Shown: piece by piece, positions 1,299 to 54,900 of the stretch
How the letters are laid out: each line of letters opens with the position of its first letter
Position numbering within the stretch: position 1 is the first letter of the stretch
Notes under the pieces: model-generated
The model's input: only the letters and a program-made list of their open reading frames with translations
What the model was told of the DNA's origin: nothing
The model's database searches: none
Position numbers and translations under genes: made by a program
DNA from: Antedon bifida
Taxonomy: Eukaryota > Echinodermata > Crinoidea > Comatulida > Antedonidae
Direction: 5' to 3'
Assembly: GCA_963402885.1 (NCBI GenBank)
Contig: OY727093.1
Location: 4,650,001-4,714,000 of the forward strand
Length of the DNA stretch: 64,000 bases

Positions 1299-4200
1299 TG
1301 CAAGAAGGCGAAATCGAAGAGAGAAGAATTAGAAAAATGCATCAAAGTTCTAAAGAAAAAAACAACTACACATTATCAAGATAAAGAAAAAGTTCGTAAT
1401 ACAGTATTAAAAAATGCTGATGTTGTGTTCTGCACATTGAATGCCAGTGGATGTTCGGATCTACACTTCCTTGCAAAGCAGAAAGGACATTTCAAATGTG
1501 TGATTGTCGACGAGGTTAGTCCAGTTCTACCATTTTCACACGCTTTCATTTGATTCAGTGTTAGTCAACTCTTACATTATGTGATATTTTTATATACAGA
1601 CGCAAGTGTTTAGCAAAACTGCATCTCTGACAAATTAGATCATTTTAAGTGCCCTTTTTAATCTAGAGACCAGTAGTGGAGGTAATGGTCTATCCTAGCT
1701 AACGATTTTTCCCCTTTTGTGGAAAGAAGACTTCTTATGGCTATGGCCTTGGATGGTTAACTCTCTTTTCTTATTCTTTCCATATTCATTTACCAGGCTT
1801 GTCAGTGCACTGAGCCAGATACTCTAATACCACTGAGGTTTAAAAGTAGTAAGCTGGTACTTGTTGGTGATCCACTGCAGCTTCCAGCTACGGTGGTATC
1901 AAAGGTAGATATCTGTTTAGCTCTGTCTACACTATCAAACTAATTTGACAAAAAAAGTGTGATGTGCCCAAATATGGTAGTGATATGCCCAAATTAGGTA
2001 GTGATATGACATCATCATGTCCATACTGAGCTTTAGATAACCAAAAAAGGAAGAAACCCAGACTATACCGCTCTGTTCTCCAGTACTTTGAAGCTCCCAT
2101 GAGAGCTCGCTGGAACAGTATTCACAGGAGGTCAAGAGAAAAAGGCATCTGTTTATCCTATCCTACCAAATTAAGATGAAAAAAGATGTTGCTTAAAGGC
2201 CCATTTACACTAGGACGATAACGATCGACGATAAATATGCATTTTTCATACATAAAACAAAGGAAATCTAAAATGTTTTCCTCCTAGAACTATAGGATTA
2301 TCATCTATGCTGCCTTTGATGAAAACTATTTTCACACGTTCAATCAAATGACGTCATGATCAGTATAGAGCATAAAACGATGTTATTGTTTTTATTGATC
2401 CTGACGTCATTTGATTGGATTTAAAAAAATATTATTATTATCAATGACAGCATAAATGATTATCCTATAGTTCTAAAATGAAAACTTTTCCAATTTATTT
2501 TATTTCATGCAAGAAAAATGTATGTTTATCTATTTATCATTCATCATTATCGTCCTAGTGTAAATGGGCCTTTAGACTTTTGTTACTTATTAATTGTAGA
2601 CCCAATAAAACTTTCAATGTAATTTCAACAATTATTAGTTTTAAGATAGGCCTATATGAGAATCATCATATTAATTATTATAGCTAGAATAAACTACAGT
2701 ATATTAGCAGGCACATGGTATGCTAGAGAGCATTATTTTTGTTCCCAACATGTTAAAGCAGTGAGTGTTTAAACAACAGGGCTATCAACCCTTAAATAAT
2801 CAAATCAGCATGCATTTGCACTGAACCTGGACAAACAGCATTCACAGCTACCAACTTTATTTTGTTGACAGAAAGCGACACAATTGGGTTTTCATCGCTC
2901 CCTATTTGAACGTATATACATGTATTATAGAAGCCAAGGGACGGAAGCAAACCATGTGTACATGTTGAACACCCAGTATCGAATGCACCCTGAAATATGC
3001 AGGTTTCCATCACAGCATTTTTACAATAGCAGACTAGAAACTCATAGGTACATTGTTTTTTTTATTCTGAATACTCACTCTGTGTTAAATGTTGTTTTCT
3101 GTCATACACCCACTGCTAACTTTGTTTCCCACTTGGACGCAACACAAGAATGTAGGCCCACCATAAATAATTTAACCAATCATGATGGGATGTGTCATCC
3201 AAACTGTCGCTTGTGATTGGTCAACTCACATCTACGAGCGCTCACTATCGAATTTCTATTAATCAGATATGATCAAGAAAAGCCTTTCCCATTCAAACCT
3301 TACTTGGTGTTTGATGTCATCAATGGACGAGAGGAATGCAATGACAAGTAAATATTAATTGTTTTATTATTTGAAAACAATTTATTATGAAACACAAAAT
3401 TAAGATACCATTAATATACAAAAATATAATTTTTGTTCAATTTACATTATGTATATTTATTACAAAATGTTATATCGAATAATTCCTACCTGTAAACTAG
3501 ATTTACAAACACACTTAGAGTACCTAATCCAAATTTCCTCAGTTTCCAGTTAAGAATAAATACATTTTAGTATGATGATTGTATATAGTGCATGAAATAG
3601 AATCTGAATTTATTTTATTTTTGTAGAGATATTAGTAACAGAGCTGAATGTGATATGGTAAAGGAATTAATTTTATCTGTGGTCCATCTGGAGAAGATCA
3701 GGATAGGTATCGTAACACCATATAGAAAACAGAAAGAGTTACTTATGGATTGTGTTGAAAGGTAATTTAGGAAAAATTCTAACTTCATTTTAGCGCCAAA
3801 AATGGCACAACTACTAGTGATAAATGTAGATGATGAAAAACGGCTAAAAGTGAGATTTGAATTAGGTTCTTCTTGATATGCAGATGCATTAGATCACTTT
3901 TGATTTTTATTTTTTAAGATTTCACTGTGTCATGAGTTTTGCTACAGGCCCATAGACAAGAGTTTTTATCTGTCTATTTCTGTCTACACTTTCAAACTTG
4001 ACAATGTGATATGTGACAAATAAATGTGATGAGGTCATATCACTACCATCTTTAAACATATCACTACCATATAGGCACATCACACTTTTTTTTGATAGTG
4101 TAGACAGAGCTTTAAGTTTGATCTCCACTAGGATGCATCGCAATGTATGAGCAACATAAGTAATTTGACCACTCACAACACGATGAACCATCTGAACTAT

Positions 4201-7200
4201 CGATTGTGATTGGTCAATTTGTTGCATTGCATTTAAGTGAGATCCAAGCTTTATTAGACGAGACATTTTGTTGTGTATAGTGGAGCTGTAGCTTGGTGGT
4301 TAACTTTCCTTCCAATCACATGGTCTAGGGTTCAATCCTGACCTAGTGCCAGTGTTGTAACTCACGACTCTTTCAACTCTGCTCTCTAAGCCTCAAATGA
4401 GACTTGGTTCATAAGCACGATAAATTATAAAATAGGTTATCCATTCTGTTGGATGCGTATAAAAAAATAAAAAATGCACTATGGTGAACACCCTATTCGA
4501 AAGAGTATGTGACCATCTGCACTTTGGCTGCTATGGGTTTTTGTATAAAGCATACTAGTACACATCTTAACTGAAGACTATAAATATTTATTTACATTCA
4601 GGCTAAATATTGATAAAAATCAAGGTATTAAAGAGAAAATCATGATATCCACTGTGGATGGATTCCAAGGACAAGAGAAAGATATCATTATTCTGTCATG
4701 TGTACGTGCAAAAGGGCGAGGAAACAATATTGGGTATGCATTACATTAGAACCCCTATTAAAGGAACATTTTCAGGTCCAAAGTGTCTCTATTTAAATAG
4801 GAGTGTCCGATGAATAGTGTTCATTGACTAAATATTTACCATACCATTTACCATATTTATTTTTTGCTAAGTTAGATTTTATTTTTTGTGTCAACCTCTG
4901 TTTGCTAAAAATACAATGCAACTAAAATTGACATGATTACTAACTATTGAAATCCTTTAGGGCATAAACATTTTGACAACTATGCATTATAATATGATTA
5001 AATTCATTCATACTTTAAATGATTTTGTTCCACTTTTTATGCATTTTATATATTTATTTGAGTGTTAATGATCGTGTATTACTTGCTTGTGCTTTCCTTG
5101 TTTAAGCTTGTCACATAAATATTAATATTAGATTATATAATTTCACAGATTTGTTGCGAATCCTAACAGAATGAATGTAGCTCTTACAAGAGCAAAGTTG
5201 GCTCTCTACGTTGTAGGTCATCTGGAAACTCTTAAGGTATTCTAGACATTTTTATTCATCAACATACAGTATCTTCTGGAAATAATTCTTTGTTACTTAC
5301 TTATTTTTAATTTGTATTTCTTTCAGACAAACCCAGATTGGTGTGCATTAATAAACGATGCAAATGATCGAAAGCTTATTTTCAAAGTGCGTGATCGTGA
5401 TTACAGACGAGCAGCTAACTATTGTGAAAAAGAAAATAGAACAAGTAAACGAGGATCTGCAAGTTCTGACCAGTCACATGACAGTGACCACCATTCACAT
5501 GACAGTGACCACCGGTCACATGACAGTGACCAAGGAACAAGAGGACGGCATAGAATAAAGGGCAATCATTCTGGGCAAAATAGATCAAATAATAAATCAG
5601 TTACTCTGTCTGATCATCTTGGAGAATTGGAAGATGGAGAAATCAGATCACAAAGTAACAGTCCTCAATTAAATGAAGATTCTGAGCCATCTACCAGTAG
5701 CCACCATTTTAAGAGGACCAAACAAGCCATTATGGCTAAATATCCAGGCGGGCCTCTCATTAGGCACATGGACGGGTTACCTTATGAGCAATGGCATGCC
5801 AGAAAAACTAAAAGCAACCAACCTAAAAACTCCAGCAATGGACATAAACAGTTAAAAAGAAAAAGGAATCGTGATGAAGATCTCGGAAATAAAAGTAAAG
5901 GCGAAGAAAGAGATTCTAATAAAATGAAAGAACACAGAGGAATTACAGCTCACACAAGTTTTGATTCTTCTGTTAATAGGCAACAGGTACATCTAGGCCA
6001 TAAAAGACACAAGAGCAATAATATTACAACATTTGAACGTAGGAGACACAGAAGTGATTCCATAACAATTAAACCAGTGGAAAAACGAAAAAGACACAGA
6101 AGTGGAGAACTACATACATCTACATGTAAGATGCATGGTGACCAAGGTCAACAGAATTCTACTGCCTCTGCTGTTAGAGCTTCCACACCAAAGTTACAGC
6201 CACTGCAAAAAGGAAGAATTAGAATAGCACACACAGCCAGGAGTGAGCTACCAAAGTCCGGACAGACTTCTTCAAACTCTGATGGCCAATCAAAGTCAAG
6301 TACATTGCAATTAGGTAACGATGAGGTAAGAAAAACTACAGTAGGTTATCTTAAGGACAGGAATGATGTAAGATCTACACTAAGAGAAGGCTCTAAATCT
6401 AAGACAGAAATGAAAACTACTGTGCAGAGAAATTTGGCATCAAAAAGTAGAAATAAGACAGGAACACAGGGCAATTCTTCTCTTGCGTCTTCATTGGCTT
6501 ATAGTTCAAACAGTTCTTCAGTATTTTCGCTGGAGAGTAATAGTCTCCACCATGGACAAGACAGTAATGCACCACAAATTACTGCAGACTCTGCAGCTGG
6601 AAGCACCCAAGCCAATAGAACTACACATGGCACTGAGCTAAGTACACATGGCACCGAGCCAAGTACATATGGCACCAAGCCAAGTGCATGTGGCACTGAG
6701 CCAAGTACACATGGCACCGAGCCAAGTGCATATAGTGCTGAGCCAAGTGCACATACCAGAGACAATTTGTATAGTCCATTCAGTATGGAAGGATCATTTC
6801 CTGAAAGTAATGACAATAATGATTATGTAGGTTGTACAGATGAAAAACAAGAAAATTATGAATTTGAAAATTTGTATAGCTCAATGAGTCCGTAAGAGGA
6901 AAAAACAATATAAATACAAAAAAATTGAAATTACAATTATTTAAAATTCAGTGCAATTTTAATATTGTCCAGGGGCGGATTGCAATATAAAGACTTTGTC
7001 TTAGGCTTAGATCTAAGCCTAAGACCCCTCGCGAAAGTCTTAGCTAAGCCTCTCAGCAAAGTCGATTGCAATATCGCGGTCTAAGCTAAGCCCGATAGAA
7101 AACCTTAGTTACCACCGTTGAGGGCATAATTTGTGTGTACAAAAATAATAAAAGCTATCGTAAATAGATAAACGCCCTCAAGCTATAGACAAAATAACAC

Positions 7201-10200
7201 GTGGGTAAAACTCGCGCGAGAGAAAGTGCTATCAATCATTAAATGACTTTTCTAACAACCAATAACAACACGCCATTTACTACAAAAAAGCGATGATTTA
7301 TGAATATTTATGAGACCCCGCAACCGTGTACGTTACACGTGTGGATTTTAATAAGGAGGTGTGTGTGTAAACGAAATATTAGAACAAAATCGAAACACAT
7401 TTTTATACCACTGACGGCTGAATATTAATTACATATAGGCCTAATTAGTAAGTTTTATATTGTTTATTACTACTACTTTACTCTATGCCTAGGCTCCTCT
7501 AGTCTATCTAGGCCTAGCTTAGCTAGTAGTATTATTAGTAGTACTGCATATAATACAGCCCGTGGCCTAGCTAGGCGGGCCTAATGAATTAGTGTAACCT
7601 AACCTTTCATTCAAGATTAAATTCCACTTATTTATTTATGCATGTGTAGCCGGCAAATGTACTATCTAGCCTGTAGAGTATATAGACCTATAATAATAGA
7701 CTGGCCAATTAATAATATTTCACATTATATTATATTATATATACTGTAATATACGATAGTAGTATACCTATACTATATAATATTTATTATTATTTATAAT
7801 AATATATGCTTTCCTTTTAATTTTAGACAAATGTGTATGAGGCCTACTTCAACAAGTTCAACAGTCAGAGAATAGATAAAGATGGAAAACAACGAATTTA
7901 ATATACTACTAGGCCTGTTTCACTTTTGTTGAAGGCCAAGCAAGGGCAAGGCTCAGCTAGTAGTATGATTTTTTACATACATCTGGATTATACTATTTCA
8001 TCATGAACTTTGTGTGTAATTTTTTGCAGCAATTTACAACGATGATATTGCCAAAATGCTGTACGAAACAAACATTGACTGAGAATCAAAATAATATTAC
8101 TGCATGGCTGTGTACTAAATTGTACTACTGTAATAATATTATAGTACTAGTAGTAGTAGGCCTAGTAGTAGTAGGGCCTAGATAGTAGCAAGTAATTACA
8201 GATTCATCATCAGCCTATGTTGACACTACACTACTAGGCCTAGCCTACAGAGTACTACAAAACATGGATATATATTTAATGGAATGGCAAAGCTAAGCAG
8301 TAAATAAAAGAATTAAGGTATTTCTATTGGTGTTTACAAATAATTAACAATCTCTAATATATTATATATAAATTACAATTTATATATAAATACTGTATTT
8401 AATGAGTAATTCATTAAATTTCTATTGGTGTTTACAAATAATTAACAATCTCTAATATATTATATATAAATTACAATTTATATATAATTTATATGTATTT
8501 AATGAATAATTCATTAAATTTCTATGGGTGTTTACAAATAATTTAACAATCTCTAATATATTATATATAAATTACAATTATATATAAATACTGTATTTAA
8601 TGAGTAATTCATTAAATTTCTATTGGTGTTTACAAATAATTAACAATCTCTAATATATTATATATAAATTACAATTTATATATAAATACTGTATTTAATG
8701 AGTAATTCATTAAATTTCTATTGGTGTTTACAAATAATTAACAAATCTTTAATATATTATATATAAATTACAATTTATATACAATTTAAATATACTGTAT
8801 TTAATATATTAATACCTGTATTATGTACAATGATGATGCTGTTATGACAGCGCCACAATTATTTTAATTAAAAATTGAATCTAATAAACCTTTAACATTT
8901 ATACAGTATAAACATTTTTTTGCAAATTTAATTAGCAATTGCATTTGCAACCATCTGCCTGATTGCACGTCCATTGTTGTCTTCAATTTGTTCATTGCGC
9001 TGCCCTGCATCCCCTATATCAATATCCTCTTCATTTTCAATTTCTGGTAAACCCAAATTACGAGCCATATTATGAAGGACCATTGTTGCTGCTACCACAG
9101 CGCAGGTTCTGTGAGGCTGCATACGGTTTTCTTCGTGCATGCACCGAAACCGCCTTTTCCATGCACCTATTGTCCTCTCGACAATACTTCTTGTTATGGA
9201 ATGTACATTGTTATACCTTCGTTCTTCCCGAGTAATTGGATTTATAAAGGGTGTCAACAGAAATGGTCGTAAAGCATACCCAGAATCCCCCAACAAATAT
9301 CCTTCTGGCATTTCACCATTTTCAAAGGCTACGCCAATACCACTCTCTCTAAAAATTCTGGAATCGTGCGTTGAACCGGGCCAACGCACTACACAATTTG
9401 TGAATCGCATGTTTGCGTCACATACGACTTGGATGTTCAGGCTATGATATCCTTTTCTGTTAACATAAACAAATTCGTCAACTGTTGGAGCTTGTATCCG
9501 GACATGAGTGCCATCAACCGCTCCAATGACATTTGGGAAACCAGATATGTCGTGAAATTTAATTTTTGTTTCCCTAATGCTTGCTGCATCCATCGGGAAA
9601 AACACATACTCATTCATATGTCTCTGTAAGGCCAGTGAAACTTGCCTTACAATTCGGCAAGCTGTTGATTCATGAATTCCTACAAACAAAGGAATACAAC
9701 ATATTATTATAATCTTGAATTAACCTAAAGTATTAAATAACAATTGATAATAGAGAATATGTATAAATTTAATTTTATAAATTTATAAGAAAAATGTAAC
9801 CTAATTTATATATTAAAATTATAGATATTTTTACCATAATTTTATTTTTATTAAAAACTAAACTAAAAGATAAAAAAAAAAAAAACAAGCAGCCTATTTA
9901 CTAGTACAAGCTTACTAATTGGCTTGTTGACTCCGCTCACTCACCATACCGCCGCCGTGCAGCTGGTGAATATTTTTAAATGGGTAAAGGTGCGAGAGAG
10001 TAAACTAGCGCCGGCGCGATAGTCATAGTCTAGGCCTAGGCCTAAATAATTATAATTTATTTTACTTAATTAGACTAAGTATTTACTAATTTTATACCTT
10101 CATTATTATCACTAAAAACTAAACAATATTATTATTGTAGTTGTGCTAATTATTAATATTAATACTTACCAGAAAGATCGCCGGAAATGTTATGCATTGA

Positions 10201-13200
10201 CCCACTTGCATAAAATCTAAGTGCTGTGCACACTTGGAGGACCGGTGGGACTGCATTATTCCTATTCGTTACATTCAAATCAATTGCTAGATTATCGCTA
10301 AGCGTCATTATACTTTGCCGGTTGAACCGAAATTTTCTATATAATTCGTTGTCATCATATTTATCAAGCGGATGCAATCTATCGCGAAAAATACGACCTA
10401 TTCTCTCGCGATAGCCTTGCACCGCGATGAAGTTCGCCATTTTTTTTGTCTTCGCGACGAATTCTAAGCCTGCTACGAGGAGGCTTAGAATCTAAGACCG
10501 CGAAACGTCCTCTCGTAGGCTTAGACTTTATATTGCAAGAGGCTTTATTCTAAGACCTCCATTGAGGGCGGTATAAAGCCTAGGCTTAAGTCTAAGACCG
10601 CGGTTAAGACCTTTATTGCAATCCGCCCCAGGAGGACAGAAAGGGACCTTTTAGGCGAAAGAGAGGAAATGGGGAAAGGTAGAATGGAGGAAGTTGAAGG
10701 TCATGGAATCAGAGATATTACCAAAAAATATCATGTTAGAAAAAGTGAAGGAGCACTAGAATATATTCTTTGTAACATATTCTGTAACATTCTTTATGGA
10801 ATTGAATTTTATACAACTCATCTACCATATGATACTTTTACAGGATAATTGTGACCATTATGAAAACAGAAGAGATTCAAATCCAATTTTTATTCTACTC
10901 CATTACCTGTACCTTGTTAGCATTTCAGCCATTTTTCTCTTCTGGTCACAAGTTGGCCATCTTACCTTATTTATGACCATTATAAGTCATTCATAGTTCA
11001 TTATTCAATATTGTGCTGTAGGTATCCCGTCTCTCCTTGCAATATCAATCAATCAATCAAAGTAACATTTATTTCTCTTCTTCTCTTTCATAGAATATAA
11101 AAATTAACAGTAAATATGATTAAAATAAAAGGGACAACATTCCAAAAAATTTCTGCTTTTTGCTCTCTCTATCAGCTTTCTTTCTTTCCATCTCTTATTT
11201 ACATAATACATTCTACAGTTCAGAAGTTGTTGATCTCTTGTGACGCAATCATGCCTACTGCTACAAAACTAGCAGTTTCGTGATTGGCACCCAAATCATT
11301 CATCATAACAGTAACCTAGCCTAGCACTTTCTAGCCTGAATGACTTACTTAAAACCTACTAATTGCTGCCTGTATATTTCCGGTAACATCAATATTAATG
11401 ACTTCATGAGCTTTGCTACTTCTGACATCGTTATAGTGGTTCAGGTTCTTATTGTTTGGGTATGTTGCTTCGTCAATACCACAATAATAAAACTATACAC
11501 AAAGATGTGCTATAACTAACTTTAATAACAACTCAAGTCAAACGAACAATATGGCGGTCTACGCACGTTGTCTCTCCTTTTCTCCCACTCCCTACGTCAT
11601 ACGTATGGGCGGCCTTAAGGGCCTCACACCTCCCCTTAGATCCAAAGTGCTTATGGCCATTTTGGATCTTCAATCAATCTTGTAGGGGCCTTAATGGTGC
11701 TGCGCATATGCCTATGCCCTTTGGGCGGGTCCACTGGTACAAAGCCAATGGATTGCGGCGTACGTTTACGTATAAAGCGTCGGTTTCTAACTAACACCCT
11801 TCCCCTCGATGTTTTGATGAAGTATCTCCTGTTTGGTTTTATATCAATTATTGTTCCGTAAATGTTAAACAGTTTATCTAAATGATTATATACTGCAACA
11901 TGGTTATGAAGCTTTAAATCTGACAGTTCTTTGGTGTGAAGATCAAAGTATTGTTTCTCTTTCACCTTCCCCTTTTCCAAGATGATTTGGGCTTCCTTAA
12001 TATCTTTCTGGAAGTCGGCATTAAAGGCGCGATGGTGCGTTGGTAGTGTATCCTGAATAGGTCGTCCAAATAACTTTATAGCAGGAGATAATCCATCTTT
12101 CCTACATGGAATATTTCTGTAGTGCAAGAGCGCTTTTGCTAACTGTTCTTTGTCTGGTAATGTATGATTTGAAGATGATGAGCGGATAAGCTTTTTCATG
12201 GATTTGACTGTAGCTTCAGCTTTCCCATTAGATTGTTGGTGATAAGGTGAGCTGTATTTTATGGTGAACTGCCAGTTATTAGCGAACTGTTTAAAACCAC
12301 TGGAGGTGAATTGTGGTCCTCCGTCGCACCAAAATACTTCAGGTACACCAACATTACAGAATAGGTCCCTTAGCTTTTCAGTCGTAGCTGCTGTAGTAGT
12401 ATTCTTACCCATATCTTCAATAATTGGCCAGTCAGTTAGGCAATCAACCACGATCAGATAATTTCTACCATTCACAAAGGCAAAATCTGCTGCAAGTTGC
12501 TGGAAGGGTCTGGTTGGTTGGGGTTTCTGAATCAGTGGTTCTCTGGGATTGACAGGTAAGTTATCCTGACAAAACTTACAGTTTGAAGTCATGTTCTCGA
12601 TATCTCGATCAATGTTCGGCCAATATAAAATCATACGGGCCCTGTCTTGAGCTCGTCGAATTCCAGGATGTGCATGATGAAGCTTGTCTAACATGATTGG
12701 TCGAAGGGCCTCTGGAACAAATAGTCTGCATCCATATACAAGAAGGTCTTGTTCAACTGACAATTCAGCTCGAATACACCAGTATTTCTTTAGATTATCA
12801 GGCATACTCGTCTTCGTTGCTGGGAAGCCATCTGTAGATACCATTTGTTTCAGTGTCTGATATTCATTGTCGTCATTTGCGGCCTTCAATATTTCGAGCA
12901 ATCTGGCATTATCAGCGTCCACACTGTCCGTGGCTGCTCGAATGGCAGCCAATGTAGGTATTGGACTAGATTCTTGACCGTTGAATGCTAATTGTTCAGC
13001 TAATTCATCTGTACTCGAAGGATTCGCATGTGGGTAACGTGACAGTGCGTCTGCTGCGTAGTTATCTTTGCCTTTAACCCACTGTGCAGTGAAGTTGTAT
13101 CGAGACATTCTAGTCTTAAGTCGTTGTAATCTGACGTTGACGATTTCATCTAATCTATGAGTGTTCAATATAGGAATAAGCGGATGATGATCAGTGACTA

Positions 13201-16200
13201 TTTGAAAATGGTGCAACCCATCTAAAAACATATAGCATTTCTGTGCTGCCCACGCAACGGCTAACATTTCAAGTTCTATCACAGCGTATCTGCTTTCTGC
13301 ATCTGTCAGATATCGCGAACCGGCCTGTACTGTTTTCCACTCATCACCGTCATGCCTTTGAGATAGAATATAGCCAATGCCATGTCTGCAGGCATCAGTG
13401 GTCAATCTCGTTGGCTTTTTTAAGTCAAAAAACGCCATTGTGGGTGCTATAGAAAGTTCATTCTTAACGTTATCAAAAGCTTGATCATGAACAGCATTCC
13501 ACATGAATTCGTTCTTTTCAGATAGCAAGGGTCGCAGTGGAGTCATCAGCTCTGCGATCTTACTAGTCGAGGATGCAAGTTGGTTTACAAGTCCACTAAA
13601 TGCCCTCAAATCTGATCTGGAACTGGGCTTTGGAAATTTACTGATCGCTTCCATGGTTTTAGGACCGATCGAATATCCATTACGTGATAAGGTGAAACCT
13701 GCGAAGGCAACTGTAGTTTTACATAACTGTACCTTATCAGTTGACAGCGCAATATGGTGTTGTTGACATCTCTTGAGATATTCTGTAACCACTTTCTGAT
13801 GCTCTTGTCTGGTTTTACTGAAAATAACCACGTCGTCGACTATGCGTCTATGATTAGTTAAACCTTGAAGCGCCTCATCCATTCGACGATTATAATGGTC
13901 CGAAATAGATGTGATACCATATGGTGCTCGCAAATATTTATACCGTCCAAAAGGAGTTATGAACGTTGTATAAGATTGGCTCTGTTTCTCTAATGGAATT
14001 TGGTGATATCCTTTCAGCGCGTCGATTACAGTAAAGTACTGAGCGTCGGAAGCAGCAATATCTGCTACCGCTTCCTGTGGAGTAGTGTGGGGATAATACT
14101 CGCGTTTTACACTTTTATTTAGTTGAGATAAGTCAACACACATTCTGATTTTTTCAGTGTCCTTTTTTGGTGCAATGACAATTGGAGCACACCAATTGGA
14201 ATGTTCAGTAGTCTTGACAATGATGCCTTGGCTTTCAAGCGTTTCAAGCTCTGCTTTCAGCTTATCATTGTAGGCATACGGTATCTTTCGTGGGGTGCTA
14301 ACACAAAATTGTTTAGCATCATCTGCTATCTTGATTGTGAATTTTTCACCAGGCATCGAGCGAATTATACCATCAAACACTTCTGGAAATTCCTTGGACA
14401 GGTTAGTCAGATTGAAATGTGGCGCAGCAATCGGACTAATGTTAGTAACTGATGCAACGTTTGCGTGACACAGTGGCTCAGGGTAAGCTGGTGAGAGAAA
14501 TCCCAACTGCTTTGATGCATCCCATGATAAAATAATGTCATCGATGTCATCAGAAAAATAAATTGTAACACTCACGCAACGTTCGTCGGTTGAAACGATT
14601 AGTGGTAATTTTCCTGCGATCTGAATTCTGTTACCTTCGACAGTTTCAGGTCGTATTTTGCAAGGGATGAGATTCTCTACGTGGTCATTAATTTGTTCGA
14701 GCAGTGATGTAGGAGCGAGACAAATATCTGAACCGGAATCAGGAAGAGCAAGAGCGTCTATGGCATGTTCCCTGTGCGTTATCATTACTGTGGTTCGAGG
14801 TGCATGTGTAAACTGATCGTACTGACTGCACGTATTGATCCGTATCGCTCCATTTTGGGGCTTAGAGCGGCATACGGTTGAAAAATGTCCGCGTTTCCTA
14901 CATGTATTACACGTAGCATCTGCAGCGGGGCAGTGCTGCCTTCCACGTTGGTGGACCTTGCCACAGTAGTTACATTTATTATTATTACTAGAAGATGGTT
15001 GTTGCTTACCCTGCTGCTTATTAATATGCTGCTTTTCTGGTTTTTTACTGTGATGTTTTCTCATATTATTGGAGTTTCTTACAGCCGCAGTAGTGCTTGT
15101 CTGGTCTAGGCTTAGCTGTTGAGGATTTATTTCATCCCTTTGTCGTTTAGCGGCCTCTAACGCACGTACCGTTGATATGGTTTTGGTCAAATCCAATTTG
15201 TCAATCGCTAAGAGTTTTTCAACAATTGTATTATCAGAGAGTCCCTCGATGATTTGATCTCTTATGGCATTCTTAGCACATTGATCATTACAAAAGTTGC
15301 ATTCGCGCACAAGGTCGCGTAGGCTAACAAGGTAGTCGTCAAATTCTTCGCCAGGTTTTTGTACCCTGGATCGAAACTTTTTCCGTTCAACTGATTCGTT
15401 CAGTTGACCTTGAATATGCGTTTCCAACGCCGTAATAATGTCCGTGGGTGACTTGAGCTGAGCCTGAGTAAGGCCTAGGTTCATTAAAATCTTCATAGTG
15501 TCAACAGAAAGGCTCAAACTGAGCACGTTTACCTGTGCTTGGTTGGGCTGTTTATCAAGTTCAGTGACAGCAATGTATGCTTTCCATTGAGTTTTCCATA
15601 CACGAAACTCCGACAGTCTGTCGCTCGCTAAATCTAGCCTTGGAGGCTGAACTTTGAATGCTCGCAGCGCCATGTTTGGGTATGTTGCTTCGTCAATACC
15701 ACAATAATAAAACTATACACAAAGATGTGCTATAACTAACTTTAATAACAACTCAAGTCAAACGAACAATATGGCGGTCTACGCACGTTGTCTCTCCTTT
15801 TCTCCCACTCCCTACGTCATACGTATGGGCGGCCTTAAGGGCCTCACACTTATAAAACACAATATCAAGTAATCTTGAAGAAACTGTAACTTTATTCACT
15901 TGCGTGATGTTTTACTAACTATTAACACATTTTTTTGACAGCAAAATACAAACATAAAGTTCTTCCCTACGATTTGACCACTGAGCTGGATGTCCGGATA
16001 AATTGGTACAAAATATAAATGTTTAGGTTGATGTAATACCGTAACAACCTAATTAATAACATTTTAATTAATTACATGGTTTTAAACATTTCTCTAAACA
16101 CTAGGAACTAAACACTGGTGCAAGTAGAAACTATGTATTTGGGAATAGTAGGGAAAGAGATATTGAAGATTCTCCACAAGGTAGTGATGATGAAGAAGGA

Positions 16201-16320
16201 ACTACAACATCTACCAGATCTATTCTGGTACCTCCAACCAGAATTACGAGACCATCAGAAAAACATGTTTCGTTTACAATGGAACCAGATATTCATGAAT
16301 TTTCAAAAGATCAAATGTGA
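1299..16320 (+). CDS. SETX: Senataxin-like SF1B RNA/DNA helicase, C-terminal part (11 exons)
   Basis: Exons read in phase: 1299-1514, 1797-1904, 2872-3047, 3267-3347, 3627-3761, 4602-4733, 5149-5236, 5327-6891, 10632-10678, 15942-16005, 16125-16320 (TGA), 936 codons in the window. Walker A lies upstream, outside the window. Seen in order: Walker B VIVDEACQ (split by an intron after DE), motif III GDPLQLPATV, LNTQYRMHPEIC, IGIVTPYRKQ, STVDGFQGQEKD and NRMNVALTRAK. This is the UPF1/Sen1 helicase core, which in the family unwinds RNA:DNA hybrids during termination and repair. A long low-complexity tail follows, rich in Ser, Lys and Arg, with two 7-residue repeats. The TAA at 6893 is best read as a donor (CC then GTAAGA, phase 2), because exons 9-11 continue in compatible phase. 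The last acceptor (16125) is weak; 16104 is a better AG but out of phase. Harbinger and gypsy elements lie in the last introns. The helicase call is firm; exons 9-11 are inferred. Confidence 0.85.
1919..2034. mobile_element. MITE, GCTCTGTCTACACTATC family, copy 1
   Basis: The left end matches the terminal repeat of a family seen eight times in this window; the right end is degraded. It carries CCAAATATGG at 1968-1977. It lies in a helicase-gene intron. Confidence 0.75.
2197..2571. mobile_element. MITE with long terminal inverted repeats and two CRE palindromes
   Basis: Both ends read inward as AGGCCCATTTACACTAGGAC, continuing for about 40 bp with mismatches. The flanks TTAA and TTAG suggest a TTA-type target duplication. 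No open frame is present. Two perfect TGACGTCA words sit near the centre (2349-2356, 2402-2409) as part of a second, inner inverted repeat. Partial relatives appear near 24400-24495 and 37800. Confidence 0.75.
3967..4111. mobile_element. MITE, GCTCTGTCTACACTATC family, copy 2
   Basis: The right end GATAGTGTAGACAGAGCTTTAAG and the degraded left end are inverted repeats of each other. The internal CArG-like words are mutated in this copy. It is intronic in the helicase gene. Confidence 0.75.
4278..4510 (+). mobile_element. tRNA-derived SINE
   Basis: The head has a pol III A box (TAGCTTGGTGG, 4289-4299) and B box (GGTTCAATCC, 4329-4338) at tRNA-like spacing, followed by a non-tRNA body. It is not a tRNA gene: the arms do not close into a cloverleaf and the same head recurs near 50390 (minus) and 51521 (plus). 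It lies in a helicase-gene intron. Confidence 0.7.
5473..5535 (+). repeat. In-frame 21-bp coding repeat, three copies
   Basis: Three tandem 21-bp units in the helicase tail encode SHDSDHH, SHDSDHR and SHDSDQG. They are His/Asp/Ser-rich and probably disordered. Confidence 0.85.
6629..6755 (+). repeat. In-frame 21-bp coding repeat, about six copies
   Basis: Units encode variants of THGTEPS (THGTELS, TYGTKPS, ACGTEPS, AYSAEPS). Conserved length with drifting codons suggests a minisatellite tolerated in a disordered tail. Confidence 0.85.
8318..8800. repeat. Tandem repeat of about 97 bp, five copies, inside the Harbinger element
   Basis: The AT-rich unit begins near TTTCTATTGGTGTTTACA and recurs at about 8320, 8419, 8518, 8616 and 8714. 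The copies are nearly identical, so the expansion is recent. Confidence 0.85.
8928..10440 (-). CDS. Harbinger transposase (HARBI1-like DDE nuclease), two exons
   Basis: Exon 1 runs 10440-10170 and exon 2 runs 9679-8928. The donor GTAAGT and acceptor TTTGTAG join in phase 1, giving about 340 residues, normal for the family. The DDE nuclease signature is visible: GAVDGTH (first Asp), RWPGSTHDSRIF (second Asp) and VERTIGAWKRRF (Glu). The N-terminal exon carries the helical region typical of the family's DNA-binding part. The product would cut and paste the surrounding element. No stop or frameshift is present, so it could be active or recently active. The start at 10440 is the first Met of the open frame and follows a T-rich run on the plus strand. 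Confidence 0.9.
10679..11452. other. Helicase-gene intron upstream of the gypsy insertion
   Basis: No exon was recognised. A short ATCA-rich run near 11043 beside ACATTTATTT could be the 3' end of a minus-strand retroelement, but this is weak. The left target duplication (CTTAT) of the gypsy element ends this stretch. Confidence 0.5.
11453..11628 (-). repeat. 3' LTR of the gypsy element
   Basis: 176 bp, TG...CA, matches the LTR at 15673-15848 at every base by eye. On the minus strand a purine-rich tract (AAGGGGAGG, 11629-11637) lies directly upstream, as expected for the plus-strand primer. Confidence 0.95.
11651..15673 (-). CDS. Gag-Pol polyprotein of the Ty3/gypsy element
   Basis: A single 1340-residue frame without frameshift. 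Order: Gag with two CCHC-like zinc knuckles (CNYCGKVHQRGRQHC and CNTCRKRGHFSTVC, residues about 234-269), aspartic protease (LPDSGSD), reverse transcriptase with catalytic IVDDVVIF in place of the usual YVDD, RNase H (TDACRHGIGY), and integrase with an HHCC finger followed by a D,D-35-E core (last part YHQQSNGKAEATVK). The order protease-RT-RNaseH-integrase identifies the Metaviridae. The first ATG straddles the LTR/primer-site junction, so there is essentially no leader. All catalytic residues are present; it looks competent. Confidence 0.95.
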   Translation of the reverse strand: MALRAFKVQPPRLDLASDRLSEFRVWKTQWKAYIAVTELDKQPNQAQVNVLSLSLSVDTMKILMNLGLTQAQLKSPTDIITALETHIQGQLNESVERKKFRSRVQKPGEEFDDYLVSLRDLVRECNFCNDQCAKNAIRDQIIEGLSDNTIVEKLLAIDKLDLTKTISTVRALEAAKRQRDEINPQQLSLDQTSTTAAVRNSNNMRKHHSKKPEKQHINKQQGKQQPSSSNNNKCNYCGKVHQRGRQHCPAADATCNTCRKRGHFSTVCRSKPQNGAIRINTCSQYDQFTHAPRTTVMITHREHAIDALALPDSGSDICLAPTSLLEQINDHVENLIPCKIRPETVEGNRIQIAGKLPLIVSTDERCVSVTIYFSDDIDDIILSWDASKQLGFLSPAYPEPLCHANVASVTNISPIAAPHFNLTNLSKEFPEVFDGIIRSMPGEKFTIKIADDAKQFCVSTPRKIPYAYNDKLKAELETLESQGIIVKTTEHSNWCAPIVIAPKKDTEKIRMCVDLSQLNKSVKREYYPHTTPQEAVADIAASDAQYFTVIDALKGYHQIPLEKQSQSYTTFITPFGRYKYLRAPYGITSISDHYNRRMDEALQGLTNHRRIVDDVVIFSKTRQEHQKVVTEYLKRCQQHHIALSTDKVQLCKTTVAFAGFTLSRNGYSIGPKTMEAISKFPKPSSRSDLRAFSGLVNQLASSTSKIAELMTPLRPLLSEKNEFMWNAVHDQAFDNVKNELSIAPTMAFFDLKKPTRLTTDACRHGIGYILSQRHDGDEWKTVQAGSRYLTDAESRYAVIELEMLAVAWAAQKCYMFLDGLHHFQIVTDHHPLIPILNTHRLDEIVNVRLQRLKTRMSRYNFTAQWVKGKDNYAADALSRYPHANPSSTDELAEQLAFNGQESSPIPTLAAIRAATDSVDADNARLLEILKAANDDNEYQTLKQMVSTDGFPATKTSMPDNLKKYWCIRAELSVEQDLLVYGCRLFVPEALRPIMLDKLHHAHPGIRRAQDRARMILYWPNIDRDIENMTSNCKFCQDNLPVNPREPLIQKPQPTRPFQQLAADFAFVNGRNYLIVVDCLTDWPIIEDMGKNTTTAATTEKLRDLFCNVGVPEVFWCDGGPQFTSSGFKQFANNWQFTIKYSSPYHQQSNGKAEATVKSMKKLIRSSSSNHTLPDKEQLAKALLHYRNIPCRKDGLSPAIKLFGRPIQDTLPTHHRAFNADFQKDIKEAQIILEKGKVKEKQYFDLHTKELSDLKLHNHVAVYNHLDKLFNIYGTIIDIKPNRRYFIKTSRGRVLVRNRRFIRKRTPQSIGFVPVDPPKGHRHMRSTIKAPTRLIEDPKWP
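15660..15672 (-). other. Primer-binding site of the gypsy element, overlapping the start of gag
   Basis: On the minus strand the base after the 5' LTR starts TGGCGCTGCGAGC. The TGG start is what a tRNA CCA end pairs with. The priming tRNA was not identified. The same bases encode the first residues of Gag. Confidence 0.55.
15673..15848 (-). repeat. 5' LTR of the gypsy element
   Basis: 176 bp, identical by eye to the LTR at 11453-11628. On the minus strand it contains ATTAAA, a possible polyadenylation signal. Such short LTRs are at the low end for the superfamily. Confidence 0.95.
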
Positions 16321-17183: not shown

Positions 17184-19500
17184 TTAGTCATAGTCATAGT
17201 CATATATACTTTATTGTCCATTTAAAAAACAGAAATGTGATTTGAAAACTGGCAAAATACAAAAATATAAAATACAATTTACAAAAACACACACAAAAAG
17301 TTAAGAGGCTAAAAATTGTTAAAATTATATAAAAATTATTATTATTTAATTATATTATATGATTTATTATTATATTGCACTTACAATGAAAGTTTATATA
17401 AAAGCATTAAAAATACATGCGTGAGCTATAAAAATAAACAAAAGCGGTTACATTTTATCTTTGTACTCTGGAGTTATATAAGTGTATAGCATTAGGTACA
17501 AACGAGCACCTAAACCGTTTTGTTTTGGTATTAAGTGCACGTAGTCTTATGCCAGAATTCATGAGAGCAAATTGTTTGTGAAGAGGATGTGTTTCATCAT
17601 CAATGATATTTTTTACTTTTTTTAACACATTTTCTTTATACAAGGATTCAACATCAGGTAAGTGCTCTCCTACTAGTCTAATTTTACACTGAGAATTACA
17701 GAGTTATAAAACAATTTAAGTATAGTTTTGTCAATTTGTAGGTACTTCATTTTTCTTAAAATAAACATCCTTTGGTTGGCTTTGCATGTGGCTTTATTTA
17801 CATTATTTATCCAATTTAGCTTATTGTCAATTATACAACCCAGATATTTGTACTCATTTACTACTTCAATCTCATTTTCATTTATAATCAGAGGTTCTAA
17901 GGGTTCTTTAATTTTCCTAAAATCAATTTGCATTTCTTTTGTTTTCTTTATGTTTAGTTTCAGGTTGTTATTGCAGCACCAGTGATAAAAATCACATCCT
18001 AGTTGTCTATAGCTTGTTTCATCATTGCCAGTAATGTATCCAGTGATGACTGTGTCATCTGCATATTTTACTATACAACATTCATTTGAATTGGCTCTGA
18101 AACTGCTGGTGAACAGTGAAAACAACATTGGGGAGATAACAGACCCTTGTGGCGTGCCAATGCTAACAGTTCTTTTATCAGATAAAATACCGTTTAGTTT
18201 AACATACTGGAACCTTTTTGTTAAGAAATTATATATCCATGAAGTCAATGTGTCGTTTACGTTCATTTCTTTAAGTTTGCGTACTAATGAACCAGGTTCA
18301 ACGGTATTAAAAGCACTAGAAAAATCTATATACAAACATCTTACATATGATTTAGGCACATCTAAATGTTGGTAAATATTATGTAAGTGGAAGAGCACAG
18401 CATCTTCAACACTTCTATTACTCTGATAGGCAAATTGGAGAGGATCGAGAAAAAATTTCGTCTGATCAAGCAACTGCCTAAGTACAATCTTTTCTAGGCA
18501 CTTACCAACATTGGATGTGATAGCTATTGGCCTATAGTCATTAAGTTCCTTGGGATTTTTTATCTTAGGAATTGGTGAGATACAGGCCGTTTTCCATTGA
18601 TTGGGCACTGTACCACTTGCTAAACTCTCATTAAAAAGTTTGGTGCCAACTCTTGGTTGCAGTATTTAATAACACGATTTCCAATTCCATCAGGGCCAGT
18701 ACTTTTACCAGGCTTTACTTTGGCGAATACATTACGCACATCAACTACATTTATGACTGCATTGTTTACTAATGAAGTCTCATTTTCGCGGATTTCTGTG
18801 TCTTCATTTTCATTTTTGGTAACTAATATCTCAGATTCAAAACGACAGAAAAAGTTGTTTAAGTCATTAGCGAAGTTCTCACTTCCATGTACACGCAATA
18901 TGGTTTCTTTGTAGCCGGTTAGTGTTTTAATTGCTTTCCATGCTGCTTTAGGATTTTTGTCTTTAAATTTATTTTCTAGTGTTTTTTTGTATTTCAGTTT
19001 GCTATTTTTTATACACTTGTTTATTTCCTTTTGAATTTCCTTGACTTTAGGAGTATCTTTTCCTCTATGCGCTATACGCTTATCTTGTAACAGTTTCCTT
19101 AGTTGGTTAGAGATCCATGGTTTTTCATTTGCATACATCTTTTTTGTTACTTTAGGTATAACCATATCAACACAAAAGGATATGTATGCTGAGAGAGTAT
19201 CATCGTCATCGAGCATAATATCCCAATCAGTACATGCTAGACAGCCACGCAACTTTTCAACCACCTCTGTACTCCACAACTGCTGTTGTATAACTACTGG
19301 TTTTGACTGTTTTAATTTTGTCTTGTATTTTGGCATAATATGTATATTGTTATGATCAGAATTTCCAAGTTTTGAACAGATTTTGCTTGTGTATGCTTTT
19401 TTCACATTGCAGTAGCATAAGTCCAGCGTAGCACTGCCTCTTGTTTCTACAGAGATTGCTTGTTCATAAGTAGGTGCATAGATATAGATCATATGTTTTA
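17184..19500 (-). mobile_element. 5'-truncated LINE (CR1/L2-like), minus strand
   Basis: On the minus strand it encodes the end of the endonuclease domain (GNSDHN), a reverse transcriptase and a C-terminal region, then ends in a TGACTA microsatellite tail (plus-strand 17184-17205), as in CR1/L2-type elements. The 5' end is truncated inside the endonuclease near 19500. No clear target duplication was found. Confidence 0.85.
17455..19492 (-). pseudogene. LINE endonuclease/reverse transcriptase fragment, frameshifted
   Basis: Three blocks in different frames: 19492-18620 (endonuclease end and linker, including KPGKSTGPDGI), 18608-17673 (reverse transcriptase with FSSAFNTV, GTPQGSVISPMLF and catalytic KYADDTV) and 17643-17455 (C-terminal region with HNSR-like LYNSR). 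A 1-bp shift near 18640 and another near 17660 break the frame, and the N-terminal endonuclease is missing. It is therefore inactive, though the YADD core itself is intact. Confidence 0.85.
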
Positions 19501-43398: not shown

Positions 43399-44633
43399 TC
43401 AACCCACGTTTGTATCAACAATCACAAACATTTTATGCGTTGGTATTTCGTGATCTTTCTTTGTGTACATCCTTACAGTTTCGTTAATCTGTTCGAGACG
43501 AAGGTCATTCGTAAGTAATCTTATGAACGAAGGATTCGTAAGAGGCGCTGTTATATAAAGCGCCTCATCTGGTATCACGGATATCAGAGCCAAAATTAAA
43601 ACCTGTGCCACTGCTGTGTTGAGAGCATACAAAGGTCCAATACGATGACATTTCGTTTCTTGTAGAGGGCGTACTACACCGTACCCCATAATTTTATCAT
43701 CTGAAATTAAATTAAATTAATTATTAAAGAATAAAGTAAGATTTTTAAAATAGAATACATTTGCAATTTAATCTGTAAGTGGAAATGCATTATCAATTTG
43801 TTGCTTTAATAGTTAATTTTGAAATTTACTTGAAGCTAAATCATTGACTTTGCTAAGCAAGTTGGCACTATTCTTAGAATTCAGTAGTATATTTTCAAAT
43901 CTAAAAACATACGTCGGAGGCAACAGGGGGTTTTTAGGATGGGAAATTCAAAGCGCAATGTTTAGTAATGCTTACTTTCTGTCACTAGTAAGCTAGTTCC
44001 TTTCTTTTCAGTTTTAGTCCAGCTCATGATGAATCGCCGTCTGTCTACACCAAAGATATCTGTGTCATATTCCACAACTCTTCCCAAAGGTCCTTCGGGA
44101 ATAGAATGTATGGAAGGATTTTGACCCAGCTCCGGGAAGAATGGTGTCTTTTCCGTTTTAAAGCAGCCATTATGCCATGCTGTGATAAAACCTAATTTCT
44201 GAAATGTCTCTATTTCATCTGGTTTAACTTCGATGCCAAGCCATCGATCTTTCAGATGTTCTAATGCAACATTCAACAATCCTTGTTCGTATCCTTGTTC
44301 CTTCTTTTCCTCATCCACATGACGAAATCCTATATAACCAAAGGAATCACTATATCGGATCCCTCCTATTGTTCCAATAACTTCTCCAGAGTCTGTCAGT
44401 GACATATAGTAACCTGATGGATCCAATTTATGAAACATCTTTAAATCTGTAGTTTTTGCTCTACAACCCTCAAGAGCTAAGCTGTTGGCCAGTATGCCCG
44501 ATTCTCCTTCGTGGATGTTCCTTATTTTTATTGACTGTGCTGCTTCTGATAATGTGCACATTCTATGGCATTGAGAACAATCGTTCCAAACCATTTTCAG
44601 AAGTTTTCTTGATGTTTGTCTGAAGAAAGACAT
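43399..44633 (-). CDS. GNAT-family N-acetyltransferase with C-terminal Acetyltransf_18-like domain
   Basis: Exon A 44633-43976, exon B 43700-43399; the donor GTAAGC and acceptor TTTCAG join in phase 1, giving 319 residues. Residues about 30-150 resemble a GNAT fold (EVIGTIGGIRYSDSFGYIGF followed by a helix with EQGYEQGLL in the acetyl-CoA-binding position). The C-terminal half (DTDIFGVDRRRFIMSW, then MGYGVVRP and RIGPLYALN) follows the pattern of the Acetyltransf_18 domain often fused to GNATs. Substrate unknown. The start at 44633 was chosen because a TTTCAG acceptor lies a few bases upstream, so the earlier ATG (44651) would be intronic; a 5' untranslated exon probably ends at 45240. It is transcribed away from NKIRAS. 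Confidence 0.75.
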
Positions 44634-44756
44634 TTTTCTGAAATTCAACATGAAAGTAAGTTGTATTTATATTCTCTTTTTTATTGTAGAGTAGCAACAT
44701 ACATCCAACATAAATAATTATCTGTACAGTAGGCCAAGCTAAAAGTGTATAATAAT

Positions 44757-51900: not shown

Positions 51901-54900
51901 AAATCATCCAATACCCTTTAAGTAGGAGGATACGAATTGACGTGTTGCGTCCCGACAACATGTCAAGCCACGTCCCAACATGCTTTACAAAGTAAACATT
52001 ACTTAAGCCATGCTGAGAATTGTCGTGCGCTGTGGCGTTATAGATAGTATACATGCTTTCCCCCCGAGGAATGGAAACCTTGTTTGGCGCTTAATACAAA
52101 GCAATCGTGTTAATGTTCGTACTTTCCGTATTGATGTAGCGTGTATGATTTTCGCCTTGTTTCCTCAATTATTTCTAATCCTGCTGCGTCGAACAAATCT
52201 CAGAATTACTGTAGTGTTTCTTTTTCAGAAAAAAAACACCAATGTTTTCAGTTACTTTTTGAATTACTGTAGTTTTAATTTTGAAACAAGCATGTTCTTT
52301 TCATTTTCACTCATTTTTAGCCGTTTCATCTTTCAATTTTTGTATTAGTTTTGTTACTTCAACAATTCATTGTTCTCTACTAATAATTCAATTTATTCCA
52401 GATGCAAATCAAGGGTATTATTTTTTCGTTCTGTATCTATTGTTATAGCTGATACGTGTCGCAAACTCCAATACATGTATCCAATTTTGTAGAAAAATAT
52501 TTTACTGATTTCTAGAATTTCAAGGGACCAGAAAACTGTAATCCTCAATATATGTGCGGTATTATTTAATAATTACTGTAGTTCATGGGTACGGTTTAAA
52601 ATTGCTTGTTGTAATTGGCATAGTTGATTCTCTCTGTAACAGAACTTAAATTTTAAAAAGAAGAAAAGTAATATACAAATTTCAAAATAAAATCTGTATT
52701 TATTGGATTCCCAATTCCAAAAAAAAAAAAAATTAAACCACCTCGTGTCTCTTGGGGCGCCCCCTGGCGTTTCCCTGGATGTTGTCTCGCTATAACATCG
52801 TTGAGAACACAGATAAGCTAGATGTGAGTGTGTTTACCTCGTTGTAGGACGTTGAATTGTAAGCATTTTCATGTTCACAGGAACGTGGCAAATTGCCTAA
52901 TAAACATAGATAAAAAATGATTGATTAGGGCGTGTTTACAATTTTATAAAGTCATGTTTTAGTGCATAAACATCAAAATAAACTATTTTTGTGTTTGATT
53001 TTATGTCAATAAACACAGTACATCAAAATCGGTTTGAAATATAACAAAGCTATACAGTAGAACTTTCAAGACTTAATACAAAATGTCCCCTTTTTTATTT
53101 ATTTATTTTTTTTTTTTATTTCAACTTTATTTATAGAGGGTAACCCTTCCAGCTGAACCCGCAGGCCAGCTGATATTCAGGGGCCCTCTTAAAAATGACA
53201 AAATATATAAAACTATACTTAACTAGTACAAATCTACTATATACATTTAAATTTAAAACAATTATATCAAAAAATAATTATCCAAAAAATAAAAAGATTA
53301 AATTAGACAATTACGATAAAATAATAAGGGTTGTGTCATAGTGTTGAAACAATGTCTTTTCATTTGACGGAAAGCATCCCCTTAGTCAACAACTTAGTTA
53401 CCCCTTCCCTTGAATTATGTGTTGGCTGTAGTAATTATAGTTTGTTTCACATGAAAGTGTCCCCGTAATTGAGATGTCCCCTGAATAGGGGTGTCCCAAA
53501 GGGGGTCTTGTACTGTAGTTAATTCTTAGATCCAAAAGCTGTACAGTAATGTAAATATGGAGATTCTGTACCATTAGACAACTGGGGATTGATGATGTGT
53601 TTAAATGGAATTCTCTTTCAAGATACACTGGTACCCCAGCCACCCTTACATAACAGTTAAACAGCCTGAGTTCCTTATTATAACATAATATGTCTAATAT
53701 AATTTAGAAATAATTATTATACCATATTTTTATTCTCATTTGTATGCATCAGGGAAAGTGATAAAAATGATTCAACTCTGGTTTTTTTATATAGCAGGTT
53801 CATTGACATCGTAATCCTTACAAATTAACTTAATTTATTTTAAGCTTTTGAACTAGTTTAGGGAAATTAAGAAATACGTATTCTCTATTCAATTTGGAAT
53901 TATAATAAACAATCAATATTTTTATTAGGAAGGAAACTAATTAATTTAAATCTAGGCCATCTTTTAAAAATCCATCAGTTTAAATTTGAGTTGAAAAGAA
54001 GGGGTTTTGTTTTCTTTTTTGAAATTTGTCTATGTAGCACAAATCATTTCCACTATTGACACTGACAGCGATAGTTAACATTATTCAATTAGAACAGTTT
54101 TATTAAATGCTTTTTGAAAATTAGGGCTGGATTATTGACAATTTAGAACTAGTAGACGTAATTGATATTGTGATTTATTGCACATGACTATTAATTTGCT
54201 ATTATGAATAGTTTGTAGTCATTAATTTCTATTTCTAAGATTTGCCTCTAAACACATGGACACATACTTCTATCAATACTGTAGATGCTGATTCTAAACA
54301 CATTGACACATGCTTCTAAACGCATTGACACATGCTTCTAAACACATTGATACATGCTTCTAAACACATTGGTACATGCTTCTAAACACATTGACACATA
54401 CTTCTAAACACATTGATACATGCTTCTAAACACATTGGTACATGCTTCTAAACACATTGACACATGCTTCTAAACACCTTGACACATGCTTCTAAACACA
54501 TTGACACATGCTTCTAAACACATTGGTACATGCTTCTAAACACATTAGTACATGCTTCTAAACACATTGGTTCATTCTTTACGTTACTTTAGGGTGTAGC
54601 CTAATTTTTGCTATCACCCATCCTTCCCTTATGAATCCTTTTACTAAATAAACATTTATCGTAAGTTTAATTCTTATTTTCGTTTCTATCTTTTCTGCTA
54701 ATCTTTTTTGAGTGCTTCATCCTATGAATACCAGTCACTGTACTGTGAAATAATGAATGATATCTAATGTACTTGAAGGTGTCTCGTTTGATTGACAGTT
54801 ACCATAGCAACCATTGACTCCCAAATACCAACATGAACTTGACCTTGTCCATCCATCCTATAAATAAAAATATTGCTCATATTTAGTTTAAAATAAAACT

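What the first reader, a model, noticed from the sequence alone, without database searches (positions are those of the whole stretch)
6970..10632. Harbinger element inserted exactly on a splice acceptor, with the acceptor CAG as target duplication
Seen: the 3-bp duplication flanking the element is CAG, and the right-hand CAG is followed directly by a 47-bp segment (10632-10678) that joins in phase with the donor at 6891 and with the exon at 15942. Before insertion the same CAG would have been the acceptor of that exon. So the transposon split the intron at its last base and now supplies the branch and pyrimidine region (CTTTATTGCAATCCGCCC) from its own terminal repeat. Known: PIF/Harbinger elements duplicate 3 bp and some prefer CWG; splice acceptors end in CAG, so such elements could be seamless intron-expanders. 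Inference: the exon is still spliced.
Basis: partly seen in the sequence, partly recalled or inferred. Interest (0 to 1): 0.78.

Follow-up and report, generated by a model that had tools for sequence, protein, structure and literature searches.

The report
Harbinger-type transposon in senataxin's tail
A young cut-and-paste transposon landed on its usual CAG-centred target near the end of an animal senataxin-like gene; that CAG may once have been a splice site, but nothing shows that the gene still splices cleanly across it.

Summary
The transposon is real: a 3,656-bp Harbinger-type element (6973-10628) with perfect 15-bp terminal repeats and CAG on both sides, at the 3' end of a senataxin/SEN1-type helicase gene. 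Nine near-identical left ends, ours included, were found. Of 24 distinct family sites with matching duplications, 21 are CAG/CTG, in a motif near GTC-CAG-GWC. The features tested fit the published NuwaI group. So the CAG duplication is the family rule, and the motif imitates a splice acceptor: ours ranks 5th of 22 scorable family sites.

Whether this CAG was an acceptor is open. For: largest GC step and best codon score of 23 family sites; senataxin frame open 71 codons past it. Against: weak donor; equally good donors lie near most family sites; real senataxin acceptors show no such step; no relative, no RNA. Nothing marks the end of the claimed 47-bp exon at 10678.

'Still spliced seamlessly' is not supported: the left CAG keeps the native acceptor, 11 higher-scoring AGs lie between it and the right CAG, and poly(A) signals lie inside the element. 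An ordinary insertion; the splice-site reading stays a testable possibility.

The parts
1300..6895 (+). 3' exons of a senataxin/SEN1-type helicase gene: part of one exon to 1514, then 1797-1904, 2872-3047, 3267 to about 3348, 3627-3761, 4602-4733, 5149-5236, and 5327 to 6891 or to TAA 6893-6895
   Evidence: AAA_12 E 2.4e-14; 5 PDB sequences match one exon, two named Helicase SEN1, best E 1e-6; exon ends placed by eye and translated. The name senataxin is inferred
6892..6972 (+). candidate 81-bp pre-insertion intron (GTAAGA...TCCAG), 41 A of 81, a multiple of three, three in-frame stops
   Evidence: inference, no RNA
6970..6972 (+). left copy of the CAG duplication; keeps the native upstream acceptor context
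6973..10628 (-). NuwaI-type (PHIS superfamily, Harbinger-like) element, without the Myb/SANT ORF of sister copy L056; strand is that of the transposase
8928..9689 (-). transposase ORF with DDE domain; 2 of 762 bases differ from L056
10159..10440 (-). ORF that probably holds the first transposase exon (splice end not determined); 281 of 281 compared bases identical to L056
10629..10631 (+). right copy of the CAG, preceded by the C-rich element end; best acceptor score of 181 AGs in 6930-10699 on a recalled matrix
10632..10846 (+). alternative: terminal senataxin exon, frame open to TAA 10844-10846, with ATTAAA/AATAAA at 11119/11124
11453..15848 (-). LTR retroelement in the following stretch; direct repeats of 177 bp, 100 percent identical; apparent duplication CTTAT
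   Evidence: duplication and exact end read by eye
16105..16319 (+). coding-like ORF to TGA; owner gene not settled (senataxin tail or another gene)
   Evidence: 28.0 bits over 70 codons; the genome search matched only this place

Best explanation
A young NuwaI-type transposon copy (PHIS superfamily, CWG target duplications) that lacks its Myb/SANT gene jumped into its own preferred motif, TGTC-CAG-GAGGA, at the 3' end of a senataxin-like gene. The CAG duplication comes from transposition, not from splicing. The C-rich element end plus the duplicated CAG makes a good-looking acceptor wherever the family lands on a sense CAG. Here that CAG may have been the acceptor of the gene's last exon (about 45 percent). 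In the present allele I expect transcripts to stop at TAA 6893, or to use the untouched left CAG, read a 37-codon tail from the element and end at poly(A) signals inside it, rather than to splice seamlessly to 10632. Shown: element, family features, duplication, motif, youth. Inferred: all splicing outcomes.
For: Perfect repeats and CAG on both sides. 21 of 24 distinct matching duplications are CAG/CTG, motif near GTC-CAG-GWC. Sister L056 carries DDE transposase and Myb/SANT ORFs; ours lacks the Myb ORF. The transposase ORF differs by 1-2 bases over 407-762 aligned bases from six sister copies (L013, L014, L015, L016, L055, L056). NuwaI: CWG, repeats usually starting GGG, mostly two ORFs (PMC4482050 section 7). 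Acceptor score of our empty site 5th of 22. Left CAG keeps score 1.82; 12 of 181 AGs score higher, 11 inside the element plus the right CAG; AATAAA at 7147, 8303 and 8883.
Against: The right CAG scores highest of 181 AGs (6.35), so splicing to it cannot be excluded. GC step and codon score here are the best of 23 family sites, not what a random landing site would show. The splice matrices are recalled, human-like and not trained on this species. One related copy (L057/L010) is only about 93 percent identical in the transposase, so not all copies are young.
Confidence: 0.72

Rival explanations
1. One reading: the CAG was the acceptor of a 47-bp exon, the element split the intron at its last base, and transcripts still join 6891-10632-15942 using the element's own end as branch and pyrimidine region.
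For: Phase fits at both joins; the right CAG has the best acceptor score of 181 AGs; 10632-10678 has exon-like codon content (0.19 percent of noncoding 47-base windows score as high in that frame) and the largest GC step of 23 family sites.
Against: The native acceptor is intact 3.66 kb nearer; 11 higher-scoring AGs and 13 poly(A)-like signals lie in the element; nothing marks the end at 10678; later sites score -4.65 and -6.77.
Confidence: 0.1
2. Before insertion the CAG was the acceptor of the gene's terminal exon, from 10632 to a stop at 10844-10846, poly(A) near 11140, after an 81-bp intron. The insertion now alters the last 70 or so residues.
For: Frame open to 10843 in phase with 6891 (14 of 5000 dinucleotide shuffles equal it in that frame); codon score positive to about 10758; ATTAAA/AATAAA at 11119/11124; empty-site acceptor within the range of seven real ones of this gene.
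Against: 221 of 5000 shuffles of 10632-10952 have an equal open run in some frame; 241 of 1439 CAGs of the element-free window are followed by such a run in some frame; the first 47 bases score high in all three forward frames; the donor is slightly weaker than the weakest of six real ones; no Pfam match of the tail.
Confidence: 0.3
3. The gene simply ends at TAA 6893-6895 and the element sits in its 3' UTR or just beyond; the splice reading is a coincidence of the target motif.
For: The donor at 6891 overlaps the stop and ranks 43 of 283 GTs; a donor at least as good lies 50-250 bases upstream of 16 of 23 family sites; acceptor score is ordinary for family targets; poly(A) signals at 11119/11124 would also serve a UTR of about 600 bases.
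Against: A GC step as large occurs at only 14 of 1439 CAGs of the element-free window; open frame and codon content after the CAG.
Confidence: 0.45
4. 10632-10678 is the start of a separate downstream gene with ATG at 10669 (MGKAKYKHK...), so the element lies in its upstream region.
For: In-frame ATG in the segment (GAGGAAATGGGG) leading on to 15942 and the coding-like ORF 16105-16319.
Against: Before insertion only about 114 bases would separate stop and start, very tight for a 315-Mb genome (inference); no Pfam or PDB match of the product.
Confidence: 0.12

Closest known systems
NuwaI group of the PHIS (PIF/Harbinger, ISL2EU, Spy) transposon superfamily, PMC4482050
   Same: CWG duplications, terminal repeats starting GGG, 15-bp repeats (published range 12-61), DDE transposase plus separate Myb/SANT ORF in a sister copy
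   Different: Our copy lacks the Myb/SANT ORF; the host was not identified (the paper lists bony fish, a beetle, a crustacean, a mollusc and an anthozoan); no transposase tree was built
Zebrafish Harbinger3_DR
   Same: Palindromic target centred on CCWGG (AAACACCWGGTCTTT; passage in PMC3016246)
   Different: Flanking motif here is near GTC-CAG-GWC; activity not tested
Introners (transposon-derived introns), PMC9860276
   Same: Target duplication and element end can together supply splice sites (passages)
   Different: Introners create whole new introns in many copies; no donor is seen at this element's left end, so it could at most lengthen an existing intron (inference)

Membership tests
NuwaI group (PHIS superfamily) | 3-bp CWG target site duplication | tested here: met
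   21 of 24 distinct sites with matching duplications (exceptions CAT, CTA, TAG); 7 further distinct sites did not match, one of them (L006/L015) mispaired by the script and CCG by eye
NuwaI group (PHIS superfamily) | Terminal repeats usually beginning GGG, 12-61 bp | tested here: met
   GGGCGGATTGCAATA, 15 bp perfect, at both ends
NuwaI group (PHIS superfamily) | DDE transposase of the PHIS type | tested here: met
   DDE_Tnp_4 E 1.8e-40; no phylogeny built
NuwaI group (PHIS superfamily) | Second ORF with Myb/SANT domain in most autonomous copies | tested here: met
   met in sister L056: Myb_DNA-bind_5 E 2.9e-18; not in the window copy, where only the repeat array matches it
Introner | Many copies, each forming a spliced intron | not testable with these tools
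   no RNA; of 23 family sites ours has the largest GC step, 0.29, next 0.19
Seamless intron expansion at a splice acceptor | Splicing from the old donor to the distal CAG | not testable with these tools
   no RNA; intact left acceptor and poly(A) signals found

The most novel reading that the evidence does not exclude
CWG-targeting Harbinger-type families carry a ready-made half splice site: a C-rich inverted end (CCGCCC) plus the duplicated CAG forms a strong acceptor on the strand that reads CAG, whichever way the element lies. On a CAG-ending intron such insertions could be spliced away whole, so these families would be tolerated at, and lengthen, existing introns; this copy would be a case caught young.
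Probability: 0.12. Interest if true: 0.6.

Novelty: new member of a known kind. Interest (0 to 1): 0.3.

Why it matters
If the exon is still spliced, it would show a route by which a transposon lengthens introns without harm because its target motif coincides with the 3' splice site. If not, it is a recent insertion that may change the tail of a conserved helicase. The general lesson: families that target CCWGG-like motifs will look as if they choose splice acceptors, so a control with the family's own target sites is needed before claiming it.

Tried and rejected
Acceptor score as proof: rejected, other target sites of the family score alike. Nearby donors as proof: rejected, a donor at least as good as 6891's lies 50-250 bases upstream of 16 of 23 family sites, and one at least as good as 10678's lies 25-220 bases downstream of 18 of 23. 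GC step as proof: weakened, seven real senataxin acceptors show steps of only -0.08 to +0.14. Codon score as proof: weakened, all three forward frames of the 47 bases score high, and the score was trained mostly on this gene's own tail. A second copy of the flank or of the predicted exons in the genome, as a paralogous empty site: none found (the searches score only the best candidates). PDB for the 101-residue peptide and Pfam for both predicted peptides: nothing. Species-specific splice and codon models: not made, the genome machine stopped answering.

Papers: listings only; one search found none. Read: passages and section 7 of PMC4482050, passages of PMC9860276 and PMC3016246. In those listings I saw no title on a Harbinger-type element at a splice acceptor; the three papers that hold all terms were not opened, so this is no proof that none is in print.

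Dropped rows: of 38 paired sites printed, 24 were kept as distinct with matching duplications; 7 distinct ones did not match and 7 were repeats of a site already listed. One search scored 22 of the 24 (two do not end in AG). One search kept 23 CAG/CTG sites, of which L021, L037 and L042 are near-duplicates.
Full report
WHERE. The window is G000:C1:4650001-4714000 of a 315.6-Mb genome in 27 contigs. The species was not identified. The + strand from about 1300 to 6895 holds 3' exons of a senataxin/SEN1-type helicase: AAA_12 E 2.4e-14; one exon matches 5 distinct PDB sequences, best E 1e-6, three named 5'-3' RNA helicase-like protein and two Helicase SEN1. The chained exons read through in one frame apart from one stop at a boundary that I placed a few bases off (3350). 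The last exon's open frame ends at TAA 6893-6895.

THE ELEMENT. GGGCGGATTGCAATA begins at 6973, its complement ends at 10628, and CAG flanks both. ORF 8928-9689 (-) is a DDE transposase (DDE_Tnp_4 E 1.8e-40). The left 130 bases give 49 matches: 9 places at 99-100 percent over 129-130 bases, ours included, 31 others at 81-99 percent, some of them partial, and 9 short inverted matches. The right 132 bases give 40 matches, 9 of them at 99-100 percent over 130-132 bases. Eight of the nine pair up; counts are lower bounds, since only the best candidates are scored. Sister L056, about 5.7 kb, has the transposase in two ORFs and a Myb/SANT ORF. The window copy lacks the Myb ORF; only its repeat array matches it. 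Most near copies are 96-98 percent alike over long stretches, one (L010/L057) about 94 to 97.5. The transposase ORF differs by 1-2 bases from six sisters and is 92.7 percent identical to L057. So the insertion is recent and may still vary between individuals (inference).

TARGET. Of 38 paired sites, 24 are distinct with matching 3-bp duplications; 21 of these are CAG/CTG, the rest CAT, CTA and TAG. Oriented on CAG, the commonest neighbours of 24 are G (14), T (12), C (15) before it and G (15), T or A (10 and 9), C (12), T (12) after it. Our site TGTC-CAG-GAGGA fits except for one base. NuwaI transposons have CWG duplications, ends usually starting GGG, and mostly a DDE plus a Myb/SANT ORF (PMC4482050 section 7). 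Zebrafish Harbinger3_DR prefers AAACACCWGGTCTTT (PMC3016246, passage). So the CAG duplication is expected for this family.

WAS IT A SPLICE ACCEPTOR? With recalled matrices, the donor at 6891 scores -1.09, rank 43 of 283 GTs in 1300-6969; six real senataxin donors scored -1.00 to 3.66, so it is just below the weakest. The empty-site acceptor scores 1.82; seven real ones score -2.2 to 4.2. But 22 scorable empty sites of the same family span -7.8 to 5.3 and ours is fifth: the motif alone can give such scores. Donors as good are also near most family sites: upstream at 16 of 23, downstream at 18 of 23. What sets our site apart is the change across it: GC rises from 0.20 (81 bases before) to 0.49 (47 after), the largest step of 23 family sites (next 0.19), and the 47 bases have the best codon score. 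In the window with the element removed, 14 of 1439 CAGs have such a step, 241 of 1439 an open run of 71 codons or more in some frame, and 6 of 1439 both, ours included. Against this, seven real senataxin acceptors have steps of only -0.08 to 0.14, so the step is not how this gene marks exons.

WHICH EXON? From 10632 the senataxin frame is open to TAA 10844. In that frame 14 of 5000 dinucleotide shuffles are as open; in any forward frame of 10632-10952, 221 of 5000 equal its run of 71; for 10632-11452, 995 of 5000 equal its longest run of 78. Codon score per codon in 42-base steps from 10633 is 0.59, 0.59, 0.19, -0.55, -0.27, so nothing changes at 10678, the end of the claimed 47-bp exon. ATTAAA/AATAAA at 11119/11124 could end the transcript. 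The claimed next exon 15942-16005 is open but scores -0.13 per codon; two of seven real senataxin exons score 0 or below, so this alone does not exclude it. The sites leading on are poor (donor 16005 -4.65; acceptors 16125 -6.77 and 16105 -2.62). The ORF 16105-16319 is coding-like (28.0 bits); its owner is not settled. An in-frame ATG at 10669 leaves open a separate gene.

IS IT STILL SPLICED? The insertion duplicated the CAG. The left copy keeps all of the native upstream sequence and the same score, 1.82, and lies first. Of 181 AGs in 6930-10699, 13 reach 1.8: the left CAG, the right CAG with the best score of all (6.35), and 11 inside the element. Splicing to the left CAG would add 37 codons; AATAAA or ATTAAA occurs 13 times in the element, first at 7147. 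So seamless splicing needs the proximal native site and several poly(A) signals to be passed over. It is possible, because the right site scores best, but not the default (inference). Introners are known to build splice sites from target duplications and element ends (PMC9860276, passages); this element shows no donor at its left end.

VERDICT. An ordinary recent NuwaI-type insertion, well placed for a good question. Probability that the CAG once was an acceptor: about 0.45. Probability that the present allele splices seamlessly as described: about 0.1. The decisive data are RNA reads and the empty allele, neither available here.

Noticed in passing
window 11453-15848: LTR retroelement with one long ORF (RT, RNase H and integrase domains), 177-bp direct repeats 100 percent identical and apparent duplication CTTAT (by eye): another recent insertion close to the first.
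   Followed up: partly
window 5469-5532 and 6622-6754: 21-bp tandem repeats inside the senataxin open frame, so the protein tail carries 7-residue repeats.
   Followed up: no
window 16105-16319: Coding-like ORF ending in TGA with a KHVSF stretch that resembles a PP1-docking RVxF motif (motif recalled, not tested); owner gene unknown.
   Followed up: partly
window 17673-19492, minus strand: ORFs of what looks like a non-LTR element (type inferred); RVT_1 E 1.2e-32 for 17673-18608.
   Followed up: no
window 43962-44651, minus strand: ORF with a GNAT acetyltransferase domain, E 1.9e-5.
   Followed up: no
window 54243-54569 and 59399-60662: Tandem arrays of 22 bp x 14.8 and 186 bp x 6.8.
   Followed up: no
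L032, L033, L034, L035, L047: Five family copies on contig C10 share the same flanks, CAT on one side and CAG on the other, so this site has probably been copied as part of a larger repeat.
   Followed up: no
L022, L030, L044: Three copies have CAG on one side and CTG on the other, as if one flank had been inverted or the ends belong to different insertions.
   Followed up: no
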